From an uncultured Desulfobacter sp. (GTDB taxonomy: Bacteria > Desulfobacterota > Desulfobacteria > Desulfobacterales > Desulfobacteraceae), in NCBI RefSeq assembly GCF_963665355.1, contig NZ_OY762229.1, positions 5,022,001-5,086,000 on the forward strand: 64,000 nucleotides of DNA, written 5' to 3'. Under the pieces are notes generated by a model. That model made no database searches and had not been told where the DNA came from. It was given only the letters and a program-made list of their open reading frames with translations. Positions 8,161 through 35,971 of this stretch are shown here, piece after piece (the stretch's first letter is position 1; every line of letters starts with the position of its first letter). Made by a program: the position numbers and the translations under genes.

Positions 8161-8184
8161 CGTTAATTTTTATTTTTTTTTTAA

Positions 8185-8217: not shown

Positions 8218-8331
8218 ATTCACTCAGAAGAAATTAACCCGAAAGTGTTGAACGAATTTCTTGGCCAGAAAAGAATCTTAAAGATTGGTTACAGCAGTAT
8301 GAAGATGTAATCAAAAAAGCGGAGCTATATT

Positions 8332-10919: not shown

Positions 10920-10930
10920 ACCAGACCTCA

Positions 10931-12028: not shown

Positions 12029-12029
12029 T

Positions 12030-12887
12030 ATGGATGTCAGCTATCCCAGTCAACTTTCCGTTATTGTGACGAACCGATGCAATCTTCGGTGCAAACTGTG
12101 CCTTCAGCCCCAAAATGATTTGGACATAGATCCGAAGCTTTTGGACAAAATGAACCATGTCTTTCCCCAGCTTGAATGGTTTCACCCCATCGGGGGAGAG
12201 CCGATGCTGTATGATCTTCACCGCTTGTTCAACCTCCCCTTTGGTGATCACTGCAAAATGAAACTCATTACCAATGGCACGTTACTGACCGATAAAAATG
12301 TCAATGGTATCGTTAAAAAGGTTGGCCGGCTGATGATCAGCGTTGACGGAGGAACACAGGAGGCTTACCGAGCTATGCGTGGATACGATCTAACCAAAAT
12401 ACTTAAAGGGGTGCAGCGGGTTCAAGCCTCAAAAGCGGCTTCAGGCAGTCTGACGCCATCTTTAGAATTTAATTTTCTGTTAACTAAAACCACCATTAAC
12501 TCTTTACCGACGCTTGCTGAATATGCCGGGGCCTATGGGATTGACTGCATCAACACCTTTTATCCCCAATTCATAGAACCTTCCCTGGAAAAGGCAGAAA
12601 AAATAAACAGAGACGAAGCCTTACCCTATATAGAAGCTGCCAAAAAACATATTTCCATAATTGAACCTGAAAACAGAGGCGGCAAGATCTGTCGCAGGCC
12701 CTGGAACACCTGTTTTGTTAACTTAAATGGAGACGTAACCCTGTGCTGTTTTGGCAGTCCTGTGGTCGGCAATTTAAACAAAAAAAGTTTTAATGACATC
12801 TGGTTTGGAAAAGCGGCGACCCAAATACGGGAAACAGTCAATACTGACAAAGAGATACCTGCATGCAGAAACTGCACAGTAAAATAA
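12030..12887 (+). CDS. Radical SAM protein with SPASM-type C-terminal cysteines
   Basis: 285 residues. CNLRCKLC gives C17, C21 and C24, the CxxxCxxC site for the SAM-binding [4Fe-4S] cluster; GGEP near 55 and SVDG near 105 are further family motifs. The C-terminal region has ICRRPWNTC, LCCFG and ACRNC, consistent with an auxiliary-cluster SPASM domain, which helps classify it with sugar- or peptide-modifying enzymes. It begins two bases after the sialidase-like gene. The substrate is unknown; position suggests oxidation or epimerisation of a sugar intermediate. Confidence 0.85.
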   Translation: MDVSYPSQLSVIVTNRCNLRCKLCLQPQNDLDIDPKLLDKMNHVFPQLEWFHPIGGEPMLYDLHRLFNLPFGDHCKMKLITNGTLLTDKNVNGIVKKVGRLMISVDGGTQEAYRAMRGYDLTKILKGVQRVQASKAASGSLTPSLEFNFLLTKTTINSLPTLAEYAGAYGIDCINTFYPQFIEPSLEKAEKINRDEALPYIEAAKKHISIIEPENRGGKICRRPWNTCFVNLNGDVTLCCFGSPVVGNLNKKSFNDIWFGKAATQIRETVNTDKEIPACRNCTVK

Positions 12888-12894
12888 CTTCATT

Positions 12895-13998: not shown

Positions 13999-14109
13999 TA
14001 CCTTTTGAATTACCTCGCCATAGTGACTATTGACGACAATGATTTAAATACTTAATTACACGTTTGAATATGATAACTTAAAATCTGATTTCTGATAAAG
14101 AGATGTGAA

Positions 14110-15042
14110 ATGGAAAGATATAATTACGATGAATTAAGACGCAGAATATCCGGCCCTGTATATCCTGTTCCACCAGCGTTTACATCTGATGGTAATTTAG
14201 ACTTGGACGCAGTTGGTGAATATGTAAAATTTCTTTGCAGAGAAGGAGCCAATGCACTCATGGTGACCGCAGGTACCAGTCGCCTTAATCTTCTCTCGCC
14301 AGAAGAAATCATAGCACTAAATCGAAAGGTCACGGAAGAATCCAAAGAGAATATCTTAGTTATTGCCGGAACGCCACCTTATGGATCAATTCAAGTGGCA
14401 TTGGAAATTATTGACGCTGCCCAACAAGATAATTGTGATGGCGCTCTGGTCTATTTCCCTGATAGGCACTACTCGGACGACTCTGTTTTTTCATATTATT
14501 TGAAGATATCAGAGATGACGGATATGCCGTTACTTGCCCACGGCCACCTGTTGCCCCGGGGGTGTGGCGGTGGTTCGGTGCCATATTCATTTGATTTGTG
14601 TTCCAAATTGACCACGATAGATTCCCTTGTGGGCATGAAGGAAGAGCTGGAAGATGAAAGCCTGCGTTATTCGATTGCGTCCCGGCTCTCAGACAGGATG
14701 CCGCTGATCGTGGCGGGGGGGAGCATGCGCAAATTTTTAGCCTGCGCCAATTTTGGTGTCAAATCCTGGCTAACCGGTATTGGAAACTTTGTACCCATGA
14801 TTGAAGAGAAATTCTGGGAAGCCTGGCAAAATAAAGACCATGAATCTTGCTTAGATATCATTGATAATACCGAAACCCCCTTTTTTAATATCGCGTTTGA
14901 ATTGGGATGGCATCGTGCTATGCGGGCTGCTTTGGAGATCATGGGGTTGATGCCGGGTCATGAACGCGTTCCACTTAGTCGAATAGATGAGGAAGGCAAA
15001 CAAAAACTTATGCTTGTAATGAAGGACCTTGGCTGGTTGTGA
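14110..15042 (+). CDS. DHDPS/N-acetylneuraminate-lyase superfamily protein
   Basis: A 310-residue (beta/alpha)8 class I aldolase relative. K177 in VGMKEE is the Schiff-base lysine position, and TAGTSRL (53-59) replaces the usual GTTGE loop. Where DHDPS and NanA have YNxPxR with the catalytic Tyr, this protein has HGHLLPRG (144-151), so the Tyr is missing and chemistry may differ. It lies between the neuB-like and neuA-like genes, with gaps of about 110 and 75 bp. It might make a keto-acid precursor or cleave one. Start ATG 14110 follows AGAGATG. Confidence 0.8.
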   Translation: MERYNYDELRRRISGPVYPVPPAFTSDGNLDLDAVGEYVKFLCREGANALMVTAGTSRLNLLSPEEIIALNRKVTEESKENILVIAGTPPYGSIQVALEIIDAAQQDNCDGALVYFPDRHYSDDSVFSYYLKISEMTDMPLLAHGHLLPRGCGGGSVPYSFDLCSKLTTIDSLVGMKEELEDESLRYSIASRLSDRMPLIVAGGSMRKFLACANFGVKSWLTGIGNFVPMIEEKFWEAWQNKDHESCLDIIDNTETPFFNIAFELGWHRAMRAALEIMGLMPGHERVPLSRIDEEGKQKLMLVMKDLGWL

Positions 15043-15117
15043 TTCTGCTTCTTACGGTTTACGAATAAGCAAGAAATCAGATTTGTATATTTTAAATGAA
15101 ACGCTTCTGAAAGAAGG

Positions 15118-15822
15118 TTGACTGTTAAATTGGAAGAAAAACCAGAAATAATAGCAATTATTCCGGCGCGTGGTGGTTCTAAGGGCTTGTATAAAAAAAA
15201 CATTCGTCTTCTAAATGGCAAACCGCTTATTGCTTATACCATTGCTTCCGCGTTAAAATGTAAAAATATAACAAAAACGTTAGTAAGCACGGAAGACAAT
15301 GAAATTGCTGAAATATCCAAAGCCTTTAATGCTGAGGTTCCGTTTTTACGACCCCGTGAATTGGCGATGGATAAGTCTTCGATTGGGTTGAGTATGGAAT
15401 ACACACTAAAGCGGTTGGAAGATGAATATAGTTATGTTCCTGATATTCTGGTTGAACTCTATCCGACTAGTCCATTTAGAACCGCCAGTATGATGAACAA
15501 ACTGACAAATATTCTTTTGGATGGTGTAAGCTCCGTAAAAACAGTAGTCTCAGTACCGGCAGACTTGCAATACTACTATCAGAGTAATAAGAATAAATTG
15601 CGGCGGTTAAAATCGACAAATTGTTTTCCAGATGAGATAATGAATTCATACTTTTTTAGAATGATCAGTCTGTTTTATGGGCGGAGACTGCGTGGTGGAA
15701 AACAGGTGATGCATATGGAGACCATAGAAAATCCAATCATGAAACTTGATATTGACTATCTTTCGGATTTCGAGATAGCTGAAAAGATAATAGAAGATGA
15801 TTTGTTTAACTTTGATGAATGA
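15118..15822 (+). CDS. CMP-N-acylneuraminate synthetase family cytidylyltransferase
   Basis: Activates a sialic-acid-like sugar with CTP. The 234 residues start with the signature IIPARGGSKGLYKKN (14-28) and contain LYPTSPFR near 117 and a C-terminal LDIDYLSDFEIAE segment, all typical of NeuA/PtmB/LegF. Start is uncertain: TTG 15118 touches the AGAAGG ribosome site, so TTG 15130 may be used, giving four fewer residues. It completes the first nonulosonate module (with 9048 and 14110). GC content falls here and stays low through 22 kb. Confidence 0.85.
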   Translation: MTVKLEEKPEIIAIIPARGGSKGLYKKNIRLLNGKPLIAYTIASALKCKNITKTLVSTEDNEIAEISKAFNAEVPFLRPRELAMDKSSIGLSMEYTLKRLEDEYSYVPDILVELYPTSPFRTASMMNKLTNILLDGVSSVKTVVSVPADLQYYYQSNKNKLRRLKSTNCFPDEIMNSYFFRMISLFYGRRLRGGKQVMHMETIENPIMKLDIDYLSDFEIAEKIIEDDLFNFDE

Positions 15823-21725: not shown

Positions 21726-23030
21726 ATGAGTGATGACAGAAAACCAATAAAGCCACCAACTCTACTCATAATGGATGTCGATGGCGTAATGACAACAGGC
21801 CAGTTTTTTTACACTGAGAAAGGTAAAATAGGTAAAGTCTTCGGCCCTCATGATAGTGACGGTTTGAAATTGATTCGGGATGAATTAAAAATCCTATTTA
21901 TTACCGCTGACAAACGTGGCTATGAAATATCTAAAAAACGGCTTGTTGACGATATGGGGTATTCACTCGAATTGATACTGGAACAAGATCGGTATCACTA
22001 TCTTAATGATCGATATGGAATGGAAAATTTTTTTTATATCGGCGATGGGATTTATGATGCTCCGGTTCTTCGCGATTGTTTCTATGGCATTGCACCATGC
22101 AATGCCAGAAAAGAAGCCATCGCCCAAGCCGATTATATAACCGAAAGCCGTTCCGGAGAAGGGGCTGTCTTGGACGCCTGCCTGCAAATTCAGAAAATTA
22201 TTCATCCTGACAGAAAGATAGAAGCAGAGCCGGCGAATCGATTTGATGCGGACACACTCAAGTTTGTTTCCATGGCGAAGTTGCCAAGTAAATTCGGGAT
22301 TCATTTTCATAACGCCGGATATTCGGCACATAAAATTAATGCTGTTTATATCCCCTTAAAAGTGGACAGCGAAGATTTAACGACGGCGATCGAATTACTT
22401 CGGAAAAATTTTCATGGGGCAGGAATTTCCATGCCCCATAAAACCAGAATTATAAAGTACCTGGATCAGATCGACGATAACGCCAAGAACATTGGTGCGG
22501 TTAACACCGTGGTCAAACAAGAAGGACGGCTTGCTGGCTATAACACGGATTATCATGGCGCCCGAAAAGCGATCAATGACACACTTGACATTTCAGGCAA
22601 GCGGGTGGTTCTGCTCGGAGCCGGAGGGGCCGCAAGGGCAATCGCCTGTGCCGTCAAGGATCTGGATGGTGAAATTTGCATTTGCAACAGAACCAGGGAA
22701 AAAGGTGAATTGATTGCAGAGATGACAGGTGGTTTATTTATCCCATGGGAACACAGAAATAAGCAGACGGGCCATTTGCTGATCAATGCTACAAATATCG
22801 GCATGGCCGCTGAGGATGACCGGTTGCCGGTTGACAAAGATACGATCAAACATTTTGATGCGGTCATGGATGTGGTGGTCGGCAAAAAGACGGGGTTGAT
22901 TCAATACGCCGAGAAATTAAAAAAAACATTCATCGCAGGCAGAACAATGACAGTGTTTCAGGCAGCGGAACAATTTCGCTTGTATACGAAACGCTGCCTG
23001 TCTGATTCTTTTCTGGCGAAATGGCTATAA
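21726..23030 (+). CDS. KdsC-type HAD phosphatase fused to a shikimate-dehydrogenase-like domain
   Basis: A 434-residue fusion. Residues 10-160: HAD phosphatase with DVDG (17-20, nucleophile D17 and D19), ITA (59-61) and GDGIYD (106-111), closest to KdsC/NeuA-type C0 phosphatases. Residues about 175-434: AroE fold with GAGISMPHKT (231-240; K239 corresponds to the catalytic Lys), NTDYHGA (273-279; D275), GAGGAARA (298-305) and NATNIGM (354-360). The SxSP segment before HN, which binds the shikimate carboxylate in AroE, is replaced by KFGIHFHN, so the substrate is probably not shikimate. AroE is not known to be fused like this. It opens the second ulosonate module. Confidence 0.85.
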   Translation: MSDDRKPIKPPTLLIMDVDGVMTTGQFFYTEKGKIGKVFGPHDSDGLKLIRDELKILFITADKRGYEISKKRLVDDMGYSLELILEQDRYHYLNDRYGMENFFYIGDGIYDAPVLRDCFYGIAPCNARKEAIAQADYITESRSGEGAVLDACLQIQKIIHPDRKIEAEPANRFDADTLKFVSMAKLPSKFGIHFHNAGYSAHKINAVYIPLKVDSEDLTTAIELLRKNFHGAGISMPHKTRIIKYLDQIDDNAKNIGAVNTVVKQEGRLAGYNTDYHGARKAINDTLDISGKRVVLLGAGGAARAIACAVKDLDGEICICNRTREKGELIAEMTGGLFIPWEHRNKQTGHLLINATNIGMAAEDDRLPVDKDTIKHFDAVMDVVVGKKTGLIQYAEKLKKTFIAGRTMTVFQAAEQFRLYTKRCLSDSFLAKWL

Positions 23031-23064
23031 AGAACAGGGAAAAAATTTTAGGGGGAGAAAAAAA

Positions 23065-23838
23065 GTGGTATTCACAACAATCGATACAACTGAGAAATAC
23101 CGGTTTGAACGTTTGGTGGCCGATGGTTCAGATGAGACGGATATATTCCGGACTGAAGAGGGCCTAAGAACGTTTTATCTGCACCGTGGGAAGATTGAAC
23201 TGATAATCCAGAACCAAGACACAACAGATGTCCATTCCATAAATGAAGGTGAAGGTGCGGTATTACTTCCCGGAACGACATGGAAAATCAATGCAATTTC
23301 CGGGTTTGACTCATTTCATGTGGTATCTCACGAGATCTTTGAACCACCCGTTGAAATTATTGATGATGGCTATGGCAAAAAAGAGATCCCTTTGGAATCA
23401 AGCAAAATTCTTAAAAACATTAAAAAGGTGAAAAAACCCTGGGGGCATGAATTGTGGATAATATGGACAAAAAAACATCATGTTCTAAAACAGATCTATA
23501 TGGTTGCCGGGAAACAGTCCAGCCTACAATTGCACAAAGCAAAGCTGGAAACAAACTTTCTTGTTGAGGGGAAAGCGGATGTTATTGCAGGGCTGCATGT
23601 TGATCTAAATGACCCGGCTTACGGCGGCAATATACCGATGGACAATTTGGATGCTTTCCGCACGTCAATCCAGCCGGGTGAGTTCTGGACATGCATACCC
23701 GGAGAAGTACATCGGGTTATCTCCATGTCCGACTATCTTGCCTATGAGGTTTCGACCCCTGAACTGGATGATGTCATCCGTCTGGCTGATGACAGCGGCA
23801 GGTTGTCCGGAAGGATCGATACGGAGCACAGGGAATAA
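23065..23838 (+). CDS. Bicupin protein (mannose-6-phosphate isomerase-like)
   Basis: 257 residues with two cupin halves. Residues about 25-100 carry a first barrel (TFYLHRGKIELII, EGEGAVLLPGTTW). The second (about 120-240) has KKPWGHELW, SLQLHKAKLETNFLVEG and GEFWTCIPGEVHRV, matching the metal-binding core of type II phosphomannose isomerases, though the GxHxHxxxxE pattern is only partly kept. Starts with GTG after a GGGGGAG site and ends one base before the next ATG. Probably binds or isomerises a sugar phosphate. Confidence 0.7.
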   Translation: MVFTTIDTTEKYRFERLVADGSDETDIFRTEEGLRTFYLHRGKIELIIQNQDTTDVHSINEGEGAVLLPGTTWKINAISGFDSFHVVSHEIFEPPVEIIDDGYGKKEIPLESSKILKNIKKVKKPWGHELWIIWTKKHHVLKQIYMVAGKQSSLQLHKAKLETNFLVEGKADVIAGLHVDLNDPAYGGNIPMDNLDAFRTSIQPGEFWTCIPGEVHRVISMSDYLAYEVSTPELDDVIRLADDSGRLSGRIDTEHRE

Positions 23839-23839
23839 T

Positions 23840-25447
23840 ATGCGATTTAAGGTTTGCATATTAGCCGCCGGGGCCGGAACCAGATCCGGTTATGCCGATA
23901 TTATTCACAAGGCGTTGCTGCCCATAGGATATACTACGGTTTTGACCCGGATTATTGAAAAGTTTGAATCCTCGACGGAAATCGTAATCGCAGTCGGTGC
24001 CAAGGCCGAACAGATTGAGGATTATATTTCAATTGCACACCCCGATCGACCTGTTAAAACTGTACTGGTTGATAGATGGCAGGGAGAGGGAATCGGTCCT
24101 GGATATTCCCTGTTGCAATGCAGGCCTTATTTGGATTGCCCCTTTATTTTCACCTCTTGTGATACCATTGTGATGGAAGAGGTCCCTGAACCCGGTTATG
24201 ACTGGGTGGGCGTTGCTGGTGTTGAAGATCCGGAGCCCTATTGCATGGTAGAGGTCAATGATCGCAAGGTTTCAGGGTTTTGGGATAAGGTTGATCCGAC
24301 CACTTTTGAGCACGCGCATGTGGACGGCAAAAATATCTGCCTGGATCACGCGTTTATCGGTATGGCCGGTGTTTTTCATGTTGAGGCGTTTTTCTCCAGC
24401 CTGGAAAATGGAAATAAGATATTGCGAAATGAGGAGTGGCAGGTTGCAAGCGGGTTGGCAGGCTTACTTCCACACAACCTTACGCCCATTCCCTTTACCT
24501 GGCATGACACCGGTACAACATCCAATTACGAAAAAACCAGGGATGAACTAAGCAAATGTCAAGTCCTTCCAAAGATCAGTGAATTCACTTTCATTGAAAA
24601 CGGCAAGGTCATCAAGTTTTATAAAGACCCGGAAATTGTAACCCAGCGAGTAACCCGGGCAGAAAAACTGGCAGGACTTGTGCCCGAAATCAGTGATTTG
24701 AAAAAAAATTTCTATGCGTATCAATATGTTCCCGGAAAACTGCTGTCAGAGGTGACAGACAATCGCTCTTTTAAAAATATGCTTGAAACCTTTAAAAAAA
24801 ATTTATGGCGGCCACTTCATTTGGACCCGGAAGAACGGAATCATTTTTATGCCGTCTGCCGGAAATTCTATGAAGGCAAAACAAAAGACCGGGTAAAAAT
24901 GCTTCTCTCCATGAATGAAATAGATGACCACGATTCCTGGATCAATGGGGAGATGGTTCCATCGCTAGCCGATCTTATCAACCAGATACACTGGGATGAC
25001 CTTTGCCATGGGCAACCAGTTCTTTTTCACGGAGATTTTCAACCAGAAAATATTGTGTTCGGACACCAGGGTATGTGTTTGTTGATTGACTGGCGGCAGG
25101 CATTTGGGTCAATCACCAACTATGGGGATATATATTATGATTTTGCAAAATTGTACCATGCACTTATTGTAAATGGCGAAGTGGTCAGAAATAATCAATT
25201 TTCGACTTCAGTCGATAGTCATTCACATGCATTTTATAATTTTTTAGTACCATCCAACCTGATGGAGTTTCGTGAAATATTTAAAGAATTTATTGAAGAG
25301 AACGGCTACAGCTGGAAAAAAGTTGAAATTTTGGGGACATTGGTGTTTGCCAATATTGCCCCGCTTCATCATCAATCCTATTGTGAATTTCTTTATTTTT
25401 TATCCAGGCGTTTATTACATCGAATATTGAAGGAGTATGCCCAATGA
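23840..25447 (+). CDS. Sugar-1-phosphate nucleotidyltransferase fused to an APH/choline-kinase-like kinase
   Basis: 535 residues from ATG 23840; an upstream frame extension overlaps the cupin gene and is rejected. Residues 1-235: nucleotidyltransferase with CILAAGAGTRSG at 5-16 and FTSCDTIV near 100. Residues about 270-530: kinase with LFHGDFQPENIVF near 395-407 (catalytic loop HGD) and LIDWRQ near 414 (metal-binding Asp). A bifunctional enzyme of this type could phosphorylate a sugar and add the nucleotide, as in licC-like or heptose activation. It overlaps the SIS gene by four bases. Confidence 0.8.
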   Translation: MRFKVCILAAGAGTRSGYADIIHKALLPIGYTTVLTRIIEKFESSTEIVIAVGAKAEQIEDYISIAHPDRPVKTVLVDRWQGEGIGPGYSLLQCRPYLDCPFIFTSCDTIVMEEVPEPGYDWVGVAGVEDPEPYCMVEVNDRKVSGFWDKVDPTTFEHAHVDGKNICLDHAFIGMAGVFHVEAFFSSLENGNKILRNEEWQVASGLAGLLPHNLTPIPFTWHDTGTTSNYEKTRDELSKCQVLPKISEFTFIENGKVIKFYKDPEIVTQRVTRAEKLAGLVPEISDLKKNFYAYQYVPGKLLSEVTDNRSFKNMLETFKKNLWRPLHLDPEERNHFYAVCRKFYEGKTKDRVKMLLSMNEIDDHDSWINGEMVPSLADLINQIHWDDLCHGQPVLFHGDFQPENIVFGHQGMCLLIDWRQAFGSITNYGDIYYDFAKLYHALIVNGEVVRNNQFSTSVDSHSHAFYNFLVPSNLMEFREIFKEFIEENGYSWKKVEILGTLVFANIAPLHHQSYCEFLYFLSRRLLHRILKEYAQ

Positions 25448-26094
25448 ACGAGTCTGTGTTCAATCTGATTGAACTATATGTGAAAGAGAAACAAGGGTTT
25501 TTGGATCAGTTTCCGGTAAAGGATGTAGAACGGGCGATTGATTCAGTTTGGAGAGCGTATGAAGATCAGAAATGTATTTACGCTTTTGGAAACGGGGGAA
25601 ATGCAGCCTATGTATCAAACATGGTGACGGATCTATTTCTCCACCCCTTTGTTTCTGAAGACAAGGGCAAGCCGGTGTCAGAGGACATACCCCGGTTAAA
25701 AATATTAAATCTATCGGAAAGCCCCTCAACAATTACAGCGCTGGTGAACGATGTGGGGCCGGATTATATTTTTTCCCATCAATTAATAAACCATGGGGTT
25801 GATGCTGGAGATCTTGTCATAGGATTTTCAGGCAGTGGGAACTCAAAGAATATCATCACGGCCTTTGAGGCGGCAAAAAAAAGGGGTGCAACAACAATTG
25901 GCGTGGCACGTGATCCTGGCGGGAAGATGAAGGGCGTGACCGATATCCTGATTCTGATTCCCGGGGTTTCCACTTTTCCCGGGCAAACCGGGAACAACAA
26001 TTTTAACTTTCATTTTGAAGACGCTCTTTCATCTATTTCGCATATTATTACAGGTATCTTTAAAATGAAGATAATGGAAAAAAGCAATGGATAG
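25444..26094 (+). CDS. SIS-domain sugar isomerase, GmhA-like
   Basis: 216 residues with FGNGGNAAYVSNMV near 47-60 and VIGFSGSGNSKNIITA near 127-142, the two sugar-phosphate-binding loops of SIS proteins. Size and the N-terminal helix match sedoheptulose-7-phosphate isomerase (GmhA). It overlaps genes on both sides (ATGA with the nucleotidyltransferase, eight bases with the transketolase N half), so the module is tightly coupled. Function as an isomerase for a ketose phosphate produced by the adjacent transketolase is inferred. Confidence 0.82.
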   Translation: MNESVFNLIELYVKEKQGFLDQFPVKDVERAIDSVWRAYEDQKCIYAFGNGGNAAYVSNMVTDLFLHPFVSEDKGKPVSEDIPRLKILNLSESPSTITALVNDVGPDYIFSHQLINHGVDAGDLVIGFSGSGNSKNIITAFEAAKKRGATTIGVARDPGGKMKGVTDILILIPGVSTFPGQTGNNNFNFHFEDALSSISHIITGIFKMKIMEKSNG

Positions 26095-26875
26095 TTTAAA
26101 AAATATTTCGAATAACATCCGGAAAAATACATTGGACGCACTCTTTGGTGCCCAGTCCGGGCATCCGGGTGCATCCCTGTCGATTGCAGAAATTCTTGCT
26201 GTACTGTTTTTTTCTAAAATGCAGCTAAATGGTGAAGCGCGTGACCGTTTCATTCTTTCAAAAGGCCATGCAGCACCGGCACTTTATGGGGCCCTGGCAG
26301 AAATGGGGGCGTGCAGTAAAGATATGCTCCCCACATTGCGAAAGTTTGAAAGCCCTTTGCAGGGGCACCCTGTTCGGGGAACGCTCCCCTATATCGACGC
26401 AAGTACGGGGTCCTTGGGGCAAGGATTGTCCATGGGGATTGGATACGCTTTGGGGATAAAACTGAAAAAAAACAGGCACCGGGTTTATGTACTCATGGGG
26501 GATGGCGAAACCCAGGAAGGCCAGGTCTGGGAAGCGGCTATGTCCGCCCCAAAATTGGGTCTTGACAATCTGGTTGCCATCCTTGATCTCAACGGCTTTC
26601 AAAATGATGGTGCCGTTGCTGATACAATGCCCGTTGAACCGGTGGCAGACAAATGGCGGGCGTTCAACTGGCATGTCGTAACGGTGGATGGCCATGATGT
26701 TGAAGCACTGAGCAATGCGTTTGAGGATTGCAGAAAAGCGCTCAAACCTTCATTGATCATTGCCAAAACAGTAAAGGGAAAAGGAATTTCATTCATGGAA
26801 GGCAAGGTATCTTGGCATTGTCAGGCAATAAATAAGTTGGATTATGAAAAAGCAATCATGGAGCTGTCAAAATGA
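26087..26875 (+). CDS. Transketolase, N-terminal (ThDP-binding) subunit
   Basis: 262 residues. GHPGASLS near 24-31, SKGHAAPALYG near 63-73, GSLGQGLSMGIGYA near 107-120 and GDGETQEGQVWEAA near 136-149 (ThDP-Mg binding) are the standard N-half motifs. The C half is a separate gene with a four-base overlap, as in the split transketolases of many anaerobes and some polysaccharide loci. Two-carbon ketol transfer between sugar phosphates is expected; whether it serves central metabolism or only this pathway is unknown, but the packing argues for the latter. Confidence 0.9.
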   Translation: MDSLKNISNNIRKNTLDALFGAQSGHPGASLSIAEILAVLFFSKMQLNGEARDRFILSKGHAAPALYGALAEMGACSKDMLPTLRKFESPLQGHPVRGTLPYIDASTGSLGQGLSMGIGYALGIKLKKNRHRVYVLMGDGETQEGQVWEAAMSAPKLGLDNLVAILDLNGFQNDGAVADTMPVEPVADKWRAFNWHVVTVDGHDVEALSNAFEDCRKALKPSLIIAKTVKGKGISFMEGKVSWHCQAINKLDYEKAIMELSK

Positions 26876-27819
26876 CTTTAATTGCGACTAGGGATGCTTT
26901 TGGCCAGGCATTATGTACTTTGGGAGCGAATCGGTCTGATGTTGTGGTTGTCAGTTGCGATCTAAGTGGTGCAACCCGGACAAAACGATTTGCAGAAGAA
27001 TACCCCGATCGTTTTTTTGAATTTGGGATTGCAGAACAAAATGCCCTCTCCGCATCCGCTGGCTTGGCTTTGGAGGGATTAAGGCCGTTTATCAGTAGTT
27101 TCGGCGCCTTTATTGCTTCCAGAGTAGATCAGATACGTACCTCCTGTGCATTCAACGGTGCGGGTGTCGTCATTGTAGGTACCCATTCAGGCCTTGCAAT
27201 TGGAAAAGATGGGGCTACCCAGATGGGATTAGATGATTTGAGCTTAATGTCATCCATCCCCACAATGAACATCTATTCCCCGGCCGATGCATTCGAGACT
27301 GAACAGATCGTTGAATATTTGTGCCGGACAAAAGACTTGGCTTATTTAAGGATCAGTAGAAAACCGTTGCCAAAAGTTTTACCTGATACATACCGGTTTG
27401 AAGCGGGGAAGGGTTATCTTTTTTCCAAGGGCCGGGACTGTATGATCGTTGCAACAGGAGATATGGTTTACTACGGCCGGCAGGTCCGTGACAAACTTGC
27501 AGGGGAAGGAGTTGATGCGGGGTTAATGAATATTTCAACTCTCAAGCCGATAGATGCTCAACTTATCCTTGATTGTGCCGCCGGCACTTCTTTGATTATC
27601 ACGGTTGAAGACCACAGTGTCATCGGCGGACTTGGAAGCCGGGTGTGTGAAGTGATCGCAGGAGCCGGACTTCCGGTCCCGGTAAAAAGAATTGGCATAA
27701 AAGACACCTTCGGGGAGAGCGGCAGTCCGGAAAAGTTGTATAAAAAACACTTGTTGGATGAAGCTGGAATTTATACCCAGATTACCTCCTTTCTTGAGGC
27801 GCCAACTCAAACGGCTTAA
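26872..27819 (+). CDS. Transketolase, C-terminal (pyrimidine-binding) subunit
   Basis: 315 residues. FEFGIAEQNALSASAG near 50-65 contains the Glu that activates ThDP, followed by THSGLAIGKDGATQ near 104 and a C-terminal domain with IITVEDHSVIGGLGS near 240. It forms the partner of the upstream 262-residue subunit. About 105 bp separate it from the RidA-like gene. Confidence 0.9.
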   Translation: MTLIATRDAFGQALCTLGANRSDVVVVSCDLSGATRTKRFAEEYPDRFFEFGIAEQNALSASAGLALEGLRPFISSFGAFIASRVDQIRTSCAFNGAGVVIVGTHSGLAIGKDGATQMGLDDLSLMSSIPTMNIYSPADAFETEQIVEYLCRTKDLAYLRISRKPLPKVLPDTYRFEAGKGYLFSKGRDCMIVATGDMVYYGRQVRDKLAGEGVDAGLMNISTLKPIDAQLILDCAAGTSLIITVEDHSVIGGLGSRVCEVIAGAGLPVPVKRIGIKDTFGESGSPEKLYKKHLLDEAGIYTQITSFLEAPTQTA

Positions 27820-27924
27820 TCTTCCCTTTGGCAGAAAGAAGACATTGAGATAGGCGATTTAATTCAGTTCAACCATTTATGATTATACTATTGCGCTTTC
27901 AAGGCCTATTCGGAGAAAGCTCCC

Positions 27925-29061
27925 ATGAAAAATGACGTGAGAATTTCCGCATTTTCAAATCAGTATGCGGAGGAAGTCTTTTTAAGCTTAGAGATGCCCG
28001 AAGGAGTAGAATTATCCAGAGGCGTAAATCGGCTGAAGGATATCTATGACCAGACGATTCGCGACAACGGTCTTGACCATGGCACTGAAATTTTTCTTCG
28101 GTTTCGGGTGAGTGATGCCGTTAACCAGGCGAACGAGATCGCCAATCAATTTCACAGGGCAAAGCCCTCTTTTTTCTCCGTGGTGGGACAACCCCCCGCT
28201 TCGGGAAGTAAAATAGCCCTTGAAGCCTATCATATTAAGTCTAAGACCCCGGTTGAAAAAAAGATGATCCTTCCGGGAGAGGGTGTTGCCGTTAAACATG
28301 GCGATTATCGCTCCCTGTGGTTATCCTGCCGGCCGGAATTCAAAACGACTTCCTTTGAGCAGACCCATCAGATCTTCTGCCAATTGTCTGATATTTTGAC
28401 CCAAACGGGAACCGATCTTGAAAAAAGCCTTATTCGTACCTGGTTGTATGTCCGTGACATAGATAACAACTATCAGGGCCTGGTCAATGCACGGCGGGAG
28501 CTTTTTCGACTAATGGGCATGCATGAGCGGTCGCATTATGTAGCCAGTACCGGCATCGGCGGCAGTGGAGAAACTGTATCAGATCTTGTGGTTATGGATG
28601 CTTTGTCTATTATCGGGCTTGAGAAAGAACAAATCCACTATATGCAGGCGCTGGATTTCCTTAGCCCAACCCATGCCTATGGTGTCACCTTTGAGCGAGG
28701 GACCCGTTTGATATTCGGAGACCGTTCCCATTTTTATATTTCAGGAACGGCAAGTATTGATAAGGACGGGGAGATTATGCATTACGGTGATGTCGGAAAA
28801 CAATGTGAGCGCACATTATTAAATATTGAAGCGTTGTTGAAATCCGAAGGGGCTGGACTGACTGATTTGAAAATCCTTATTGTTTATCTGCGAGATATTG
28901 CTGATCGGAAAATCATTCAGGATTTTTGCAAGCAGCATCTGCCCTTGGGATTACCTTTAATTGTAGTCCTCGGATCGGTTTGCCGCCCTGGGTGGGTGGT
29001 AGAAATGGAGGGGGTTGCGGTCAATGACCAAGGGAATCACGCCTTTTCGCCATTTTGTTAA
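27925..29061 (+). CDS. RidA/chorismatase-fold protein
   Basis: 378 residues. The C-terminal 130 residues resemble the YjgF/RidA fold: FYISGTASIDKDGEI near 271-285, HYGDVGKQCERTLLNIEALL near 287-306 and VCRPGWVVEMEG near 352-363. The first half also has a related fold (IRTWLYVRDIDNNY near 170-183), so it is a tandem RidA-like protein of the length of chorismatases (FkbO/XanB2, 330-370 residues), which cleave chorismate. The Cys-Arg and Glu-Gly positions at the end fit both families. It may act on an enol or enamine intermediate, or on chorismate. Unusual in a glycan locus. Confidence 0.6.
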   Translation: MKNDVRISAFSNQYAEEVFLSLEMPEGVELSRGVNRLKDIYDQTIRDNGLDHGTEIFLRFRVSDAVNQANEIANQFHRAKPSFFSVVGQPPASGSKIALEAYHIKSKTPVEKKMILPGEGVAVKHGDYRSLWLSCRPEFKTTSFEQTHQIFCQLSDILTQTGTDLEKSLIRTWLYVRDIDNNYQGLVNARRELFRLMGMHERSHYVASTGIGGSGETVSDLVVMDALSIIGLEKEQIHYMQALDFLSPTHAYGVTFERGTRLIFGDRSHFYISGTASIDKDGEIMHYGDVGKQCERTLLNIEALLKSEGAGLTDLKILIVYLRDIADRKIIQDFCKQHLPLGLPLIVVLGSVCRPGWVVEMEGVAVNDQGNHAFSPFC

Positions 29062-29176
29062 AGAGGGTCAATAGCTTTAACTATTTGGAAACCGGCAAAA
29101 ATTACAAGGTCTGAAAAAGAATGGGACCTGAAGAAACAAGGACTGGCAAGGGAAAATAATTAAAATAGGAGGAGAT

Positions 29177-29989
29177 ATGTCTTGTGGCGAAAATACATTA
29201 TGGATTGTTGGCCCCTGCTCGGTCGAAAGCAGAGGCTACTTTCTAAAAGCCGCGGAATTTTTATACAAAACTTTCGAAGGCCGTGATTTTTTTCTTAAGG
29301 GATCGTTTGATAAAGCCAATCGGACATCTGTTTACGGTAAGAGGGGGCCTGGTCTTGAGGAATCCATAGATATTTTCCGGGAAACCAAAGAAGCGATGCC
29401 CGGCGTTAAAATAATAACGGATGTCCATGAAACTCACCAGGTCGAAAAACTGGCAGGTGTCGTAGACGCAATCCAAATTCCCGCGTTTCTTTGCCGGCAG
29501 ACAGACCTCTTGCAAGAGTGCGGGAAAAACTTCAAAGATGTAAATGTCAAGAAAGGGCAGTGGATAGATCCGCATCAAACTGCGTTTTTTGCTGAAAAAA
29601 TAAAAAGCAAGAACCCCGATACGCGTGTCTGGATCACTGAGCGCGGGACCTTTTTCGGATATGGAAACCTTATTGTGGATTTCAATGCGGCCGGCATCAT
29701 GAGAGAATACTGTGACCATCTTATCATTGATTGCACGCACTCCACCCAGCATAAAGAGGGTCAGTTCACCTCGGGAAGCAGGTCTCTGGCCGAAAAATAC
29801 CTGATGGCTTCGATTCCCTTCAGCTATACCGGCATTTTTATTGAAACCCATTTCGAACCAAGCAAAGCGACATCGGATGGGGATTGCATGGTATTGACCC
29901 AACGCATTCCTAAATTGCTCAAGGTGTACGACAAAATGTCGCAGATATATAAAAATGAAAACGGAGAAGGGGCAGATGATGAAAAGTAA
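29177..29989 (+). CDS. 3-deoxy-D-manno-octulosonate 8-phosphate synthase family
   Basis: 270 residues; condenses PEP with an aldose phosphate. IVGPCSVES near 8-16 (the Cys suggests the metal-dependent class), KGSFDKANRTS near 42-52, GPGLEESIDIF, IITDVHE near 77-83, IQIPAFLCRQTDLL near 95-108, VKKGQW near 118, and DCTHSTQ near 184 match KdsA. Differences from canonical KdsA include GTFFGYGN where it has GANFGYDN, and the altered THxxQ stretch. Good ribosome site GGAGGAG. With the SIS, phosphatase and cytidylyltransferase genes it completes a Kdo-like set, but a variant substrate is likely. Confidence 0.85.
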   Translation: MSCGENTLWIVGPCSVESRGYFLKAAEFLYKTFEGRDFFLKGSFDKANRTSVYGKRGPGLEESIDIFRETKEAMPGVKIITDVHETHQVEKLAGVVDAIQIPAFLCRQTDLLQECGKNFKDVNVKKGQWIDPHQTAFFAEKIKSKNPDTRVWITERGTFFGYGNLIVDFNAAGIMREYCDHLIIDCTHSTQHKEGQFTSGSRSLAEKYLMASIPFSYTGIFIETHFEPSKATSDGDCMVLTQRIPKLLKVYDKMSQIYKNENGEGADDEK

Positions 29990-30701
29990 TCTTGCAATAA
30001 TTCCTGCCAGGGGGGGCTCCAAACGGCTTAAAAATAAAAACACAAAATTACTGTGCGACCGGCCGTTGATTGTTTATTCCCTTGAAGCTGTCATTGAATC
30101 AAATCAGTTCGACAGTATCATTGTAACATCAGATTCAGATGAGATCCTTGAACTTTGTAAAGAATATGCAGGGGACCGGATTCGTCTTCATAAGCGTCCT
30201 GACCATTTAGCGACGGATACCTCTACAGTGCTGGAAACGGTCAAGGTTATAGCCGATGAAGAAAAAAATGCCGGGCGTGAATATGATGTGATTGGGTTGT
30301 TCCTTCCGACGGCCCCTTTACGTACAGCAAAAGATGTGAATGAGGCTATGGCGCTTCTGGACGAGAACACCGACAGTATCGTGTCGATCACGAACTATGA
30401 ATTTCCGCCACAATTGGGTCTTATTAAAGACAAAAATGAGTTGCTTTGTGCGTATCATGAATCCGACCCTTTCAGGAAAGAAAAAACACGCAGTCAGGAC
30501 TATGAAATGATATACAGGCCCAATGGCGCCATTTATATTTCCTGGTGGGAAAAATTTCTTACCAATAAAAATTTTTTTAAGGGAACGGTTGGGGGGTATT
30601 TCATGCCCCGGGAGGTTTCAGTAGATATCGATACGGAATTTGATCTGGTCATAGCCAGTAATATTGTTAAAAAATTCGATTTGCCTTTAAATACACCTTA
30701 A
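29976..30701 (+). CDS. Second CMP-sugar synthetase (NeuA/KdsB-type)
   Basis: About 241 residues from ATG 29976, preceded by GGAGAAGGGG; it overlaps the synthase gene by 14 bases. IIPARGGSKRLKNKN near 8-22, LFLPTAPLRTAKDV near 110-123 and DIDTEFDL near 221-228 are characteristic. It lies directly behind the KDO8P-synthase-like gene, so it presumably activates the product of that module. It is distinct from the cytidylyltransferase at 15118. Confidence 0.87.
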   Translation: MMKSNLAIIPARGGSKRLKNKNTKLLCDRPLIVYSLEAVIESNQFDSIIVTSDSDEILELCKEYAGDRIRLHKRPDHLATDTSTVLETVKVIADEEKNAGREYDVIGLFLPTAPLRTAKDVNEAMALLDENTDSIVSITNYEFPPQLGLIKDKNELLCAYHESDPFRKEKTRSQDYEMIYRPNGAIYISWWEKFLTNKNFFKGTVGGYFMPREVSVDIDTEFDLVIASNIVKKFDLPLNTP

Positions 30702-30804: not shown

Positions 30805-32736
30805 ATGATGACGACCACAAGGCCCTTGACGAATTCTCTTGTCGTATCCGGAAGCAAGGTAGACAGTAGAGGTGAAGACTTTGTTAACAACCTCTTTGGT
30901 ATTCATAAAGTTAACAATTATTGTGTTTACGTTGATCATACCTCTCGTGAAGAAGATGTGCCGGAATTAAGTGCGCTTTCAAATAACGGCTATTTTACCT
31001 TTGATATCAACAAGGTGGGTAATATTTTCAAAGGTGATGAAATAATGCTTATACGCACAGATGGGGATGTGCCGGAATGCGACGGCTGGATTGTAGCGTC
31101 AACCAGTCGTGCATCTGCATTTTCACTGGCGGCAGCATTGAAGAATGCAGGCAAAGAAGATCAAATCATTTGTCGGCTTTACGACGGCCAAACTACGAAA
31201 ATAGGTGGGTATATGGATTTGTTTTCGGGCGAAACGGAAACCTTGATATACATCAACCACTATTTCGATCGAAAATACCGTATCAATTTCCCTATTGATC
31301 TTCGATATTCAGTTTGTTCATGTGACGGGGAAACTGTTTTGTCCGGCCAAAGAATTATACCGGCCGGCGGCATTACAGTGTTAGATTCCCGGGATATGGC
31401 ACTTGGCAAGTTTAAGGGATATTTACAGGTGGATCTGGAAGTGGAAAATTTGCAGTCCAGAATCCAGCCTTTTCTTCATTTCTGGGCAGATTATATCAGT
31501 GATGCCGGAATTTGCCGGAACCATCAGTCCGGCTGGGCCCCCCATCCACCGGGAGCAGTTTTTAACAGAGGGGTCTTCACATTGGACGATGATCTGGAAT
31601 CAATTGGATCTTTTTATAATGAAAATGACACTGCCGCCCAGGCGACCGTATTGCTGCATTATAATCAGAACGGGGTTGAAGAAAAATATGAAAAAACATT
31701 AACACCGATTCCGCCACGTTCCATGCGATACTACAATTTTTCTGACCTTTTTTCCGACGTTGCGCCGACCAAGGCAAATTCGGCATACCTTCTTATTAAA
31801 TGCGATACACCACTGCACAGGCCGAATCATTACATCGCAAAAAAGAATAAAGAACAATTTGTTGATACTTACCACCAAACCCGTGGTGCTGCACTTTACT
31901 GGGATAAACAAGGTACCTATGATGACGATAAAATCAATCGTATGAAACAGTTCAGAGCTTATCCTTGGATTGTTACCTTCCCAATTTTAGAACAACGATT
32001 TGGCATCGATACCTATTTGGGATTGTTGTCACAAACTGTGGCCGGGAATGGCGCTTTCACGTTTAAATTTTTAAATGCCAGGGGCGAAGAAATATTTTCA
32101 GAAGCAGGGATTTTAAACAGTCAGAGCGAACAATTTATAAATTTGAATCAATATGCAAGTCATAAAGGCATTGAAATTGATAAGGGAACATTTTGCCTGG
32201 TTCCGAATGAGAATGAGTCTCCTGTTCATGTTGGCCCCCCTCTTTTTTTCGGATTAAAACATAGAAAGTTCAAATATATTTCCACATCTTTCAGAGAAGG
32301 ACGAAAAGAGGCAAAATTACCCTTCTATGTCGATGAAGGAACGCCGATTGCAAGAGAGTATAACTATTCACCGCTACAGATCAGCGATCTCTTTTCTCCG
32401 GGATTCGTATCAGATGAATATGATTCAATAATTATCGTCGAGCACAAAAGTTTATTAAAATCCTACCGCGATTCTATAAAATATGAACTTGAAATAGCGG
32501 ATTCGACTGGAAGACGATATGTCCTGCATCATGAAATAGCGGCATTCTCTCATGATGCCTTCTGGCTTAGTGATATGTTAAAAGAAATGAGGTTGCCTAA
32601 TGGGTATTACACCGTATGGATTAAAAGTAATGAAGCATATCTTAAATCATTTCATGGACTATACCGAAAGAAGGATCATGCTTTAAGTTTTGATGATGGG
32701 TCAGAAGGAACACTGCAGAAAGAACCTCAAATATAG
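30805..32736 (+). CDS. Large beta-rich protein, unknown family
   Basis: 643 residues with no signal peptide or membrane helix. The middle (about residues 125-320) has repeated strand-turn patterns (INFPIDLRYSVCSC, GYLQVDLEVEN, FLHFWADYISDAG, PPRSMRYYNFSDLF). A segment CRNHQSGWAPHPPGAVFNRG near 235-255 is striking for its His and Pro residues. It follows an AAGGAG site. The last 30 codons recur in degenerate form at 33621-33710. Probably glycan-related by position; nothing more can be said. Confidence 0.55.
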   Translation: MMTTTRPLTNSLVVSGSKVDSRGEDFVNNLFGIHKVNNYCVYVDHTSREEDVPELSALSNNGYFTFDINKVGNIFKGDEIMLIRTDGDVPECDGWIVASTSRASAFSLAAALKNAGKEDQIICRLYDGQTTKIGGYMDLFSGETETLIYINHYFDRKYRINFPIDLRYSVCSCDGETVLSGQRIIPAGGITVLDSRDMALGKFKGYLQVDLEVENLQSRIQPFLHFWADYISDAGICRNHQSGWAPHPPGAVFNRGVFTLDDDLESIGSFYNENDTAAQATVLLHYNQNGVEEKYEKTLTPIPPRSMRYYNFSDLFSDVAPTKANSAYLLIKCDTPLHRPNHYIAKKNKEQFVDTYHQTRGAALYWDKQGTYDDDKINRMKQFRAYPWIVTFPILEQRFGIDTYLGLLSQTVAGNGAFTFKFLNARGEEIFSEAGILNSQSEQFINLNQYASHKGIEIDKGTFCLVPNENESPVHVGPPLFFGLKHRKFKYISTSFREGRKEAKLPFYVDEGTPIAREYNYSPLQISDLFSPGFVSDEYDSIIIVEHKSLLKSYRDSIKYELEIADSTGRRYVLHHEIAAFSHDAFWLSDMLKEMRLPNGYYTVWIKSNEAYLKSFHGLYRKKDHALSFDDGSEGTLQKEPQI

Positions 32737-34548: not shown

Positions 34549-35971
34549 GAGACCTTTGCATGAAAAGCATCTGTTCCGATTTTAGTATTTGGGGCAATTT
34601 TTTTTACAGTCGGGTCGCTAAAGGACATCAGAACGTATCGTATTTAGCAGCCATCGGAAGGCCCCGCAACCTCGTTTTTCCTCTTTATGAGGCATTTTGT
34701 ACCGGATTTTGGAATCCGGGCGCACCTATTCTCATTAAACAGGTATGACATTGAGCAATTTAGCACCTTTTCTTAAATTGAAAGCAAACTGTCGAAACAT
34801 GATATCAATGGTATTCTTCATAATCTCCGGAAATCGAGCCCGTTGTCCATTATCGTGCTCGTGGCTGATGCCAAAATACTGTTCGACAATGTACCGGAGC
34901 TTTGAAATGGCTTTATTCCGTTTGATTTCAGTCTCAGTCAATTTAGCGGTTTTAGAGTCCTTTCTCATAATGCCGTCCCCAATATTGTTTAACGCAAGGA
35001 AGCTACGATTCGGAGCACCGGCATATCCTTTGTCAGCATAGACCTTTTGAATCTTATTATTGGTATGCATACTGGAAATAACAACCATAGGCAGATGAAT
35101 AGAATCATTTTGAGAAGACGGTGTCATATATGTGGAAAGGATAAAACCGTTATCGGTATCAACCGCCGTATGTTCCTTGAGTCCGAAATGAGGTTTGTCA
35201 TTTTTGATGCTCCAGTCGGAATCCAAATCCCTGGAGTATTTTTTCCTGCTGCCGTTTTTATCCAACTGGCCTTCCCTGGTAAGGCTTTTCTCTTTAAGCT
35301 CTTTCAACTGATCGTTGGAAACTGGTCTGCTGGCAGATTTCACCAGACGGGCATCAACTGCAATGCCTTCATTAATAGAGTATCCAAGCCGATGAAACTG
35401 ATTAAGCAACGCACTGTTTATTTTTATCATGGCATCTTTGGTCAAACGTTTACGGAAGCGGGAATAAGTCGAATGGTCAGGGCTGGCTTGTTCCAACGGC
35501 AGTCCCAGAAAGGATCTGAAGGAAACCCGATCATTGATTTGGCTTTCCAGTTCCGGGTCGGATTTTATCCGAAACCATTTTTGAAGCAGGAGGCATTTGA
35601 ATAAAAACAATGGCGGATAGGCAACCTCACCGAGTTTTGACTTCCCCGGTTCATAGTGCTTCAGCAGGAGCGCCTGAATTGGTTCCCAGTCTACGGTTTT
35701 GTCAATTTCTTGAAGGAATATATGGTTTCTATTCTTTCGGGAGTATTTCTGGATCGCCATATCAGCGAAGGAACAACCGTACTGGATCTTTTTGTATGCC
35801 ATAATAACTCCTGAATTTAAAATTTATTACTACCTATATAGCATAATATACCCATTATTTAAATTTGTTATATAAAATAAAGTAAAACTAAAATATGAAA
35901 TCTGATAGTAAAATTAATGACTGCGGAAGCGGAAGCGGCTCGCTGGCGTCGACGACCCGTGCAAAGGTCTC
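34549..35971 (-). mobile_element. Complete IS5-family insertion sequence (about 1.42 kb)
   Basis: Bounded by imperfect 14-bp terminal inverted repeats, GAGACCTTTGCATG at 34549-34562 and its complement CGTGCAAAGGTCTC at 35958-35971 (one mismatch), and by GATAT duplications on both sides. It encodes one transposase on the minus strand with about 170 bp of non-coding sequence at each end. The intact frame, repeats and target duplication suggest a recent insertion. It sits between AT-rich glycan genes and does not interrupt an evident frame. Confidence 0.85.
34735..35802 (-). CDS. IS5-family transposase
   Basis: 355 residues. The N-terminal domain has LLLKHYEPGKSKLGEVAYPPLF-like and SFRSFLGLPL segments typical of IS5; SPDHSTYSRFRKRL precedes the catalytic core. 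DDE residues: D in VDARLVKSAS near 148, D in VYADKGYAG near 258 and E in RYIVEQYFG near 311. The order and spacing look intact and no frameshift is seen. The gene runs antisense to the glycan operon. Confidence 0.93.
   Translation of the reverse strand: MAYKKIQYGCSFADMAIQKYSRKNRNHIFLQEIDKTVDWEPIQALLLKHYEPGKSKLGEVAYPPLFLFKCLLLQKWFRIKSDPELESQINDRVSFRSFLGLPLEQASPDHSTYSRFRKRLTKDAMIKINSALLNQFHRLGYSINEGIAVDARLVKSASRPVSNDQLKELKEKSLTREGQLDKNGSRKKYSRDLDSDWSIKNDKPHFGLKEHTAVDTDNGFILSTYMTPSSQNDSIHLPMVVISSMHTNNKIQKVYADKGYAGAPNRSFLALNNIGDGIMRKDSKTAKLTETEIKRNKAISKLRYIVEQYFGISHEHDNGQRARFPEIMKNTIDIMFRQFAFNLRKGAKLLNVIPV

What the first reader, a model, noticed from the sequence alone, without database searches (positions are those of the whole stretch)
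21726..30701. Candidate undescribed ulosonic-acid pathway with a split transketolase
Ten genes mostly overlapping by 1-14 bases: phosphatase/AroE-like fusion, cupin, nucleotidyltransferase-kinase, SIS isomerase, transketolase N and C, RidA-like, KDO8P-synthase-like, CMP-sugar synthetase. Kdo synthesis needs an isomerase (KdsD), synthase (KdsA), phosphatase (KdsC) and CMP-synthetase (KdsB); all four roles have a candidate here. The transketolase, nucleotidyltransferase-kinase and RidA-like enzyme are extra and could make a non-standard aldose phosphate and modify the product.
Basis: partly seen in the sequence, partly recalled or inferred. Interest (0 to 1): 0.88.

Follow-up and report, generated by a model that had tools for sequence, protein, structure and literature searches.

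The report
Two sugar pathways in one cluster
A bacterial surface-sugar gene cluster that looked like one unusual acid-sugar pathway seems to hold a recurring, apparently undescribed kit for an unusual activated sugar, beside a separate acid-sugar gene pair and a relative of chorismate-splitting enzymes.

Summary
The genes are real: nine (not ten) co-directional genes; four of eight junctions overlap. The 'RidA-like' gene is a chorismatase-family relative with all four known Hyg5 active-site positions. The 'AroE-like' half lacks the AroE substrate motif. The genome has a canonical KdsA/KdsC operon and another transketolase elsewhere, so these copies are dedicated extras.

Comparison separates the cluster. 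In ten other loci with the nucleotidyltransferase-kinase, phosphatase and cupin lie within about 6 kb in 10/10; a weakly KbaZ-like protein in 9/10; split transketolase plus isomerase in 2/10; KdsA-like, CMP-synthetase and chorismatase in 0/10 (stretches of about 20 kb or less). Phosphatase, AroE-like, cupin, kinase-transferase, isomerase and transketolase pair recur complete in two Alphaproteobacteria.

Best reading: a nucleotide-activated sugar pathway (transketolase, isomerase, phosphatase, kinase, transferase) joined in this genome to a divergent KdsA-like/CMP-synthetase pair making a non-Kdo ulosonic acid. A single joint ulosonic pathway is not excluded. Substrates and products are inferred. 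My literature searches found no description. New variant of a known kind; interest 0.55.

The parts
21726..23030 (+). Fusion: KdsC-like HAD phosphatase (about residues 1-160) and shikimate-dehydrogenase-family oxidoreductase lacking the AroE substrate motif (about 172-434)
   Evidence: separate genes in L030, L031, L035, L101
23065..23838 (+). Bicupin; C-terminal half weakly resembles the mannose-6-phosphate isomerase cupin (isomerase or epimerase, inferred)
   Evidence: full-length relative in L031 (38.7%)
23840..25447 (+). Nucleotidyltransferase (N half, sugar-1-phosphate type by fold) and APH-family kinase (C half)
25444..26094 (+). SIS-fold, GmhA-like protein (ketose-phosphate/aldose-phosphate isomerase, inferred)
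   Evidence: relatives in L031 and L101
26087..26875 (+). Transketolase N-terminal (TPP-binding) subunit
   Evidence: another transketolase in a 677-aa frame elsewhere in the genome
26872..27819 (+). Transketolase C-terminal (pyrimidine-binding) subunit
27925..29061 (+). Chorismatase-family relative (called RidA-like); four Hyg5 active-site positions kept; hydroxybenzoate synthase inferred
29177..29989 (+). Divergent KdsA-like 3-deoxy-ulosonate-phosphate synthase
29976..30701 (+). CMP-ulosonate (PseF-like) cytidylyltransferase, overlapping the KdsA-like gene by 14 bases

Best explanation
The stretch holds two sugar-nucleotide modules plus one aromatic-acid gene, probably all serving one surface glycan. 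Module 1 (21726-27819) makes a nucleotide-activated aldose. The dedicated split transketolase builds a ketose phosphate, the GmhA-like SIS protein isomerises it to an aldose phosphate, the KdsC-like HAD removes the phosphate, and the fused APH-family kinase and nucleotidyltransferase convert the free sugar to sugar-1-phosphate and then NDP-sugar. The cupin isomerises or epimerises, and the SDH-family half reduces or oxidises one carbon. In most other loci a KbaZ-like protein, perhaps an aldolase, stands where transketolase and isomerase stand here. Module 2 (29177-30701) condenses phosphoenolpyruvate with an aldose phosphate other than arabinose 5-phosphate and activates the product as CMP-ulosonate, borrowing the HAD or another phosphatase. 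The gene between them (27925-29061) probably turns chorismate into a hydroxybenzoate. Shown: gene content, kept catalytic residues, recurrence of module 1 without module 2 in the stretches held. Inferred: every substrate, product and reaction order, and that the units serve one glycan.
For: Recurrence (tblastn E<=1e-3): of 10 non-window loci with the kinase-transferase, HAD 10, cupin 10, GatZ/KbaZ-like 9, TK pair 2, full-length SIS 2 (the same two), AroE-like 4, KdsA-like, CMP-synthetase and chorismatase 0. All seven module-1 functions are in L031 and L101. The one locus without the KbaZ-like protein (L101) has the TK pair. Nucleotidyltransferase half: the 50 best fold matches shown are led by sugar-1-phosphate nucleotidyltransferases RmlA/GalU; by profile GalU, LicC and two '6-deoxy-D-mannoheptose pathway' proteins. 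Positions G11, G13, R15, K24, D108, D223, H397, D399, N404, D417 are invariant in 7 of 7 rows (catalytic roles recalled). SDH-family half: a 100/98 branch splits six rows from ten AroE rows, and the six lack the H-S-L-S-P motif. KdsA-like: metal and phosphate motifs kept, 18 of 83 near-invariant columns changed. Chorismatase relative: G210, G274, C353, E360 match Hyg5 G173, G240, C327, E334 and are kept in 13 of 13 rows.
Against: Only two loci besides the window carry the complete set, both from one order of Alphaproteobacteria. The two modules are contiguous and co-directional here, which favours a joint pathway. On Solidesulfovibrio pDCAR1 a split TK lies near NeuB/PseF genes without kinase-transferase, HAD or cupin matches in the stretch. 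L031 carries both TK and KbaZ-like genes, and L030/L035 have the AroE-like gene with the KbaZ-like one and no TK, so exchange of the two is an inference. The KbaZ-like match is weak (29.2-36.3 bits, and in L031 22.6 against a cut-off of 26.7). L103's contig is 4,244 bases, so its absences mean little. The window's SDH half scores higher with an AroE model (PRK00258.3-3, 202 bits) than with PRK12550 (185.5), L030's relative passes TIGR00507 (213.8 against 200.2), and its tree branch is long. The kinase half has no significant solved relative, so 1-kinase is a guess. The cupin model matched general bicupins.
Confidence: 0.55

Rival explanations
1. One joint ulosonic-acid pathway: transketolase and SIS make an unusual aldose phosphate, the KdsA-like enzyme condenses it with phosphoenolpyruvate, the HAD dephosphorylates, the oxidoreductase half modifies, and P0009 makes the CMP-sugar; the kinase-transferase and cupin are a side branch.
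For: All nine genes are contiguous and co-directional; the KdsA-like enzyme departs from canonical KdsA at 18 of 83 near-invariant columns, several in stretches that I place near the acceptor sugar from recall; the HAD half is of the KdsC kind; a split TK occurs near NeuB/PseF genes in Solidesulfovibrio.
Against: TK, SIS, HAD, AroE-like, cupin and kinase-transferase recur together without KdsA-like or CMP-synthetase genes in the stretches L031 and L101; the one KdsA found in L031's genome lies next to CTP synthase and enolase genes. L101's genome was not searched for KdsA.
Confidence: 0.27
2. Aminoshikimate-like logic: TK, a DAHP/KDO8P-type synthase, an SDH-family reductase and a chorismate-using enzyme build a cyclic carboxylic acid, as in rifamycin AHBA biosynthesis.
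For: The rif cluster also uses a transketolase (orf15; orf15A and 15B in its gene list), aminoDAHP synthase and RifI dehydrogenase (passages of PMC8788734). Chorismatase relatives in two same-genus genomes sit beside DAHP synthases.
Against: No DHQ-synthase match among the nine; P0008 carries KANRTS and scores 259 with a KDO8P model against 92 with the best DAHP model; the AroE-like half lacks the AroE substrate motif; CMP activation is unexplained.
Confidence: 0.06
3. Chance neighbours: a glycan island of independently acquired genes with no shared product.
For: The window carries a transposase at 34735-35802; module 2 and the chorismatase relative are not linked to module 1 in the ten other loci.
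Against: Tight overlaps inside each module, and recurrence of module 1 in other bacteria.
Confidence: 0.12

Closest known systems
Kdo pathway (KdsD, KdsA, KdsC, KdsB)
   Same: A KdsA-family synthase beside a CMP-transferase, with a KdsC-family phosphatase in the cluster
   Different: KdsA is divergent, the CMP-transferase is PseF-like, the isomerase GmhA-like; the genome has its own KdsA and KdsC elsewhere
GDP/ADP-heptose pathway (GmhA, HddA, GmhB, HddC) and lincomycin GDP-octose pathway (both recalled)
   Same: Same logic: ketose phosphate, SIS isomerase, kinase, phosphatase, nucleotidyltransferase
   Different: APH-family kinase fused to the transferase, KdsC-type phosphatase, dedicated split transketolase, extra cupin and SDH-family enzyme
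FkbO/Hyg5/XanB2 chorismatases
   Same: C-terminal RidA-type domain and the four Hyg5 active-site positions
   Different: 40-66 bits against TIGR04444's cut-off of 325 in the 4 members scanned; N-terminal domain match below cut-off (16.5 against 27); activity untested
Rifamycin aminoshikimate pathway
   Same: Transketolase, DAHP-type synthase, SDH-family dehydrogenase
   Different: No DHQ synthase; KDO8P-type synthase; CMP-transferase present
Nonulosonic acid (NeuB-type) pathways
   Same: PseF-like CMP-transferase; a split TK near such genes in Solidesulfovibrio pDCAR1
   Different: The synthase here is PF00793 (KdsA side), not PF03102 (NeuB)

Membership tests
KdsA (KDO8P synthase) | Passes curated KdsA models | tested here: inconclusive
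   NF003543 259 >= 242 met; TIGR01362 246.4 < 314 not met. The genome's other KdsA passes both (410.2, 385.8)
KdsA (KDO8P synthase) | Metal ligands and phosphate-binding KANR motif | tested here: met
   C, H, E, D aligned to positions 11, 185, 222, 233 of 1fwn, and KANRTS (ligand roles recalled)
KdsA (KDO8P synthase) | Near-invariant residues of canonical KdsA | tested here: not met
   18 of 83 columns differ; 33 canonical rows differ at 0-11
KdsA (KDO8P synthase) | Uses arabinose 5-phosphate | not testable with these tools
   Needs an assay
Complete Kdo pathway | KdsB, KdsC and KdsD orthologues | tested here: not met
   P0009 best is PseF 149.6 < 205.7, KdsB models 29-43 bits; HAD half KdsC model 58.3 < 106.95; SIS best is GmhA 71.5 < 209.45, no KdsD model listed
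AroE shikimate dehydrogenase | Substrate-binding H-S-L-S-P motif | tested here: not met
   Absent in the window half and in 5 of 5 other non-AroE rows; of 10 AroE rows 8 read HSLSP, one HTLSP, one HSKGP
AroE shikimate dehydrogenase | Curated aroE model | tested here: not met
   TIGR00507 191-193 < 200.2; but L030's relative passes at 213.8
SDH5 (PRK12550) | Curated model score | tested here: not met
   NF009202 183-186 < 306, although the match starts at profile position 4; the Pantoea protein passes at 451.6
Chorismatase | Hyg5 catalytic Glu-334 and CH-II residues (Gly, Gly, Cys) | tested here: met
   E360, G210, G274, C353
Chorismatase FkbO/Hyg5 subfamily | TIGR04444 cut-off | tested here: not met
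   66.2 < 325
Chorismatase | Converts chorismate | not testable with these tools
   Needs an assay
Heptose-type NDP-sugar pathway | GmhA equivalog and GHMP-type anomeric kinase | tested here: not met
   GmhA 71.5 < 209.45; kinase domain is APH
Heptose-type NDP-sugar pathway | Sugar-1-phosphate nucleotidyltransferase fold | tested here: met
   RmlA/GalU by fold, heptose-pathway proteins and LicC by profile

The most novel reading that the evidence does not exclude
All nine genes make one hybrid building block: transketolase and isomerase supply a new aldose phosphate, used both for an NDP-sugar and, through the KdsA-like enzyme, for a new CMP-activated 3-deoxy-ulosonic acid, reduced by an SDH-family enzyme and decorated with a chorismate-derived hydroxybenzoate.
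Probability: 0.2. Interest if true: 0.82.

Novelty: new variant of a known kind. Interest (0 to 1): 0.55.

Why it matters
If module 1 holds, it is a recurring NDP-sugar assembly line, with split transketolase plus isomerase or a KbaZ-like protein as the likely source of the carbon skeleton, seen in Desulfobacterota (window, Geobacter), Alphaproteobacteria, Gastranaerophilales and Yonathbacteria, with no description in the papers I could search. It would suggest functions for three orphan enzyme types (this SDH-family group, this KdsC-like HAD subfamily, the APH-fused nucleotidyltransferase) and warn against reading every KdsA- or KdsC-like gene as Kdo synthesis.

Tried and rejected
Rejected: standard LPS Kdo synthesis as the main role (separate canonical KdsA and KdsC); AroE proper; housekeeping transketolase; RidA imine deaminase as the likely role of P0007. 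An aminoshikimate-type route is kept only as a minor rival.

Led nowhere: three single-protein scans of viral contigs confirmed no relative. P0010 has no match in Pfam, NCBIfam or plasmids and no significant match to the partner of the Smac51 chorismatase relative. The cupin structure (mean pLDDT 77.7) matched general bicupins. The kinase half matched no solved chain usefully. Promoter-like sites were 34 against 26.3 +/- 5.8 in shuffles and terminator-like sites 11 against 12.1 +/- 3.4: not clearly above chance. Paper searches for the gene combination gave 0, 2, 3 and 1 papers; titles and abstract openings seen, none on the subject. Cupin and SIS hits on Sinorhizobium and Chloroflexota plasmids showed no related cluster in the annotation. 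Chorismatase relatives in G174 and G092 had no other window gene nearby.

The chorismatase tree warned of long branches, so no sister of P0007 is claimed. P0008's branch in the KdsA tree is very long (2.9) and its place unsure.
Full report
What is there. The window is G000:C2:5022001-5086000 of a 5.6 Mb genome. It shares a phylum with G153, whose contig length equals that of Geobacter sp. L1geo PJFB01000007, so I infer Desulfobacterota. The region 21726-30701 holds nine co-directional genes. Four junctions overlap by 4, 8, 4 and 14 bases, one is a 1-base gap, and gaps of 34, 105 and 115 bases follow the fusion gene, TK-C and the chorismatase relative. The 643-aa ORF after them has no family match.

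Dedicated copies. The genome has a canonical KdsA (NF003543 410 bits, TIGR01362 386 bits) near a KdsC (TIGR01670 162 bits), an LptB and an RpoN gene, a separate AroE above its cut-off (267 bits) and another transketolase in a 677-aa frame. The copies in the cluster are therefore additional.

The RidA-like gene. P0007 matches the chains 5ag3/5a3k, which I recall as Hyg5, over residues 145-365 (E 1.3e-10, 3.2e-9), and TIGR04444 at 66 bits, far below the cut-off of 325. [quoted passage not shown] its Glu-325/Glu-334 pair gives the offset of nine by which I mapped them to Hyg5 173, 240 and 327. All four positions are kept in P0007 and in 13 of 13 aligned rows. PMC3949708 (passages) says the product cannot be predicted accurately from alignment alone. 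On Acidiphilium and Acidithiobacillus plasmids, relatives sit directly after an SCP2 gene and two U32 genes; in L009 these pass the UbiT, UbiU and UbiV models, and 4-hydroxybenzoate is the precursor of that ubiquinone route (PMC6747719, passages). In two same-genus genomes, relatives are next to DAHP synthases. Relatives at the thresholds used were in 4 of 297 phylum genomes and 4 of 59 near relatives, own genome included in both. A chorismate-to-hydroxybenzoate role is likely but untested. How hydroxybenzoate would enter a glycan is unexplained; I noticed no activating ligase among the 40 window ORFs scanned against Pfam.

The fusion gene. The C-terminal half belongs to the shikimate dehydrogenase superfamily but lacks the H-S-L-S-P motif. 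In a 16-row tree, ten AroE rows stand on one side of a 100/98 branch and six rows, the window half among them, on the other. Pantoea and Klebsiella 'shikimate 5-dehydrogenases', the latter beside sorE, are in that set; the Pantoea protein passes PRK12550 (451.6). A 5-ketofructose reductase (7cok) is among its solved relatives, and a paper (PMC7954740, passages) relates such reductases to shikimate dehydrogenases but reports that one putative shikimate dehydrogenase was inactive with 5-ketofructose. Reduction of a keto-sugar is thus plausible, no more. Against a separate identity: the window half scores higher with one AroE model than with PRK12550, L030's relative passes TIGR00507, and the window and L031 branches are long. 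The N-terminal half is of the KdsC kind (58 bits against 107), in a subfamily found in the ten other loci at 36-56% identity to the window's (A5; the genome's canonical KdsC is 28%).

Comparative genomics. P0003 was found in 1 of 59 near relatives, the own genome, and in 2 of 395 phylum genomes, the own and G153. One alignment-based scan of genome contigs gave six loci, one of them G153 again; a search of 162 genomes in the order of G450 gave five genomes, G450 itself among them. Together these are ten distinct non-window loci. Presence by tblastn at E<=1e-3: HAD 10, cupin 10 (both within about 6 kb), GatZ/KbaZ-like 9, AroE-like 4 (L030, L031, L035, L101), TK-N and TK-C 2 (L031, L101), full-length SIS 2 (the same; L035 has a partial 28% SIS hit at its end), chorismatase 0, KdsA-like 0, CMP-synthetase 0. 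L103 is only 4,244 bases long, so its absences mean little, and the stretches are about 20 kb or less. L035's kinase-transferase is in two frames. L031 has cupin, kinase-transferase, SIS, TK-N, TK-C and AroE-like genes in one run, with a HAD, KbaZ-like, GT, cupin, kinase-transferase run just before it. L101 has AroE-like, SIS, kinase-transferase and cupin genes facing TK-N, TK-C and HAD. The KbaZ-like matches to Pfam are weak (29.2, 30.6 and 36.3 bits in L030, L032 and L026; 22.6, under the cut-off of 26.7, in L031). The one KdsA found in L031's genome lies between CTP synthase and enolase genes. The chorismatase relative was not found in 5 of 5 genomes searched. G599, the genome of L101, was not searched for KdsA.

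The kinase-transferase. A structure predicted from seven rows (mean pLDDT 87) matches sugar-1-phosphate nucleotidyltransferases such as RmlA and GalU. A profile search adds LicC and two 6-deoxy-mannoheptose pathway proteins. The kinase half has the APH domain but no significant solved relative by sequence, so an anomeric kinase is an inference by analogy with NahK-like APH kinases (recalled).

The KdsA-like enzyme. P0008 keeps the metal and phosphate motifs aligned to 1fwn but differs from canonical KdsA at 18 of 83 near-invariant columns, where the 33 canonical rows, each held against the others, differ at 0-11. Those rows are 29 of the 30 loci (the thirtieth is P0008 itself) plus four others, so close to P0008 by choice; L001 gave no match and was dropped, and three DAHP-like rows served as outgroup only. 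The 18 are scattered; some (canonical S to G at P0008 residue 54, P to K at 193 with a neighbouring deletion, N to C at 237, S to M at 238, L to T at 241) lie in stretches that I place near the acceptor sugar from recall. Among the listed hits in 395 phylum genomes, which are sorted by E-value and cut at the end, none but P0008 itself exceeded 48% identity. The synthase overlaps the PseF-like CMP-transferase by 14 bases.

Mechanism and standing. The recurrent set has the parts of a heptose-type route: ketose phosphate former, SIS isomerase, phosphatase, kinase, nucleotidyltransferase, plus a cupin and a reductase. The KbaZ-like protein may replace transketolase plus isomerase as the supplier of the carbon skeleton; one locus has only the latter, eight only the former, one both. 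The KdsA-like/CMP-transferase pair is added in this genome. Whether it draws on the same aldose phosphate cannot be told here; contiguity argues for it, the comparative table against an obligate link.

Literature. Searches for the gene combination gave 0, 2, 3 and 1 papers, none on the subject (listings and abstract openings seen). This library lacks most subscription journals, so absence of a description is provisional.

Noticed in passing
window 7213-15822: Separate upstream run with a NeuB protein that also carries SAF and xylose-isomerase-like domains, a BNR-repeat protein, a DHDPS-family protein and a CMP-transferase: looks like another ulosonic-acid set.
   Followed up: no
L088 8685-16303 (G398), L089 4963-16727 (G402), L012: Chorismatase relatives beside a DAHP synthase (class I in L088, class II in L089), with imelysin and thioredoxin-domain proteins nearby and a di-haem oxidoreductase in L088; imelysin, di-haem and porin genes also precede the relative in Parabacteroides. 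May mark an undescribed aromatic-metabolite system, perhaps tied to iron.
   Followed up: partly
L009 11315-16863, L010, L011: On acidophile plasmids a chorismatase relative sits between UbiT/UbiU/UbiV-type genes and PdxS/PdxT, perhaps supplying 4-hydroxybenzoate for oxygen-independent ubiquinone synthesis.
   Followed up: partly
L082 (Solidesulfovibrio carbinolicus pDCAR1): Split transketolase inside a cluster with NeuB-type, PseB, PseC, PseF, SIS, PfkB and APH-type genes, as annotated.
   Followed up: partly
L031 4657-14834: Two versions of the module in tandem, one with a KbaZ-like protein and one with transketolase and isomerase.
   Followed up: partly
window 34735-35802, minus strand: Transposase (DUF772 and DDE domains) inside the glycan region.
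   Followed up: no
window 30805-32736: 643-aa protein directly downstream with no Pfam, NCBIfam or plasmid match.
   Followed up: partly
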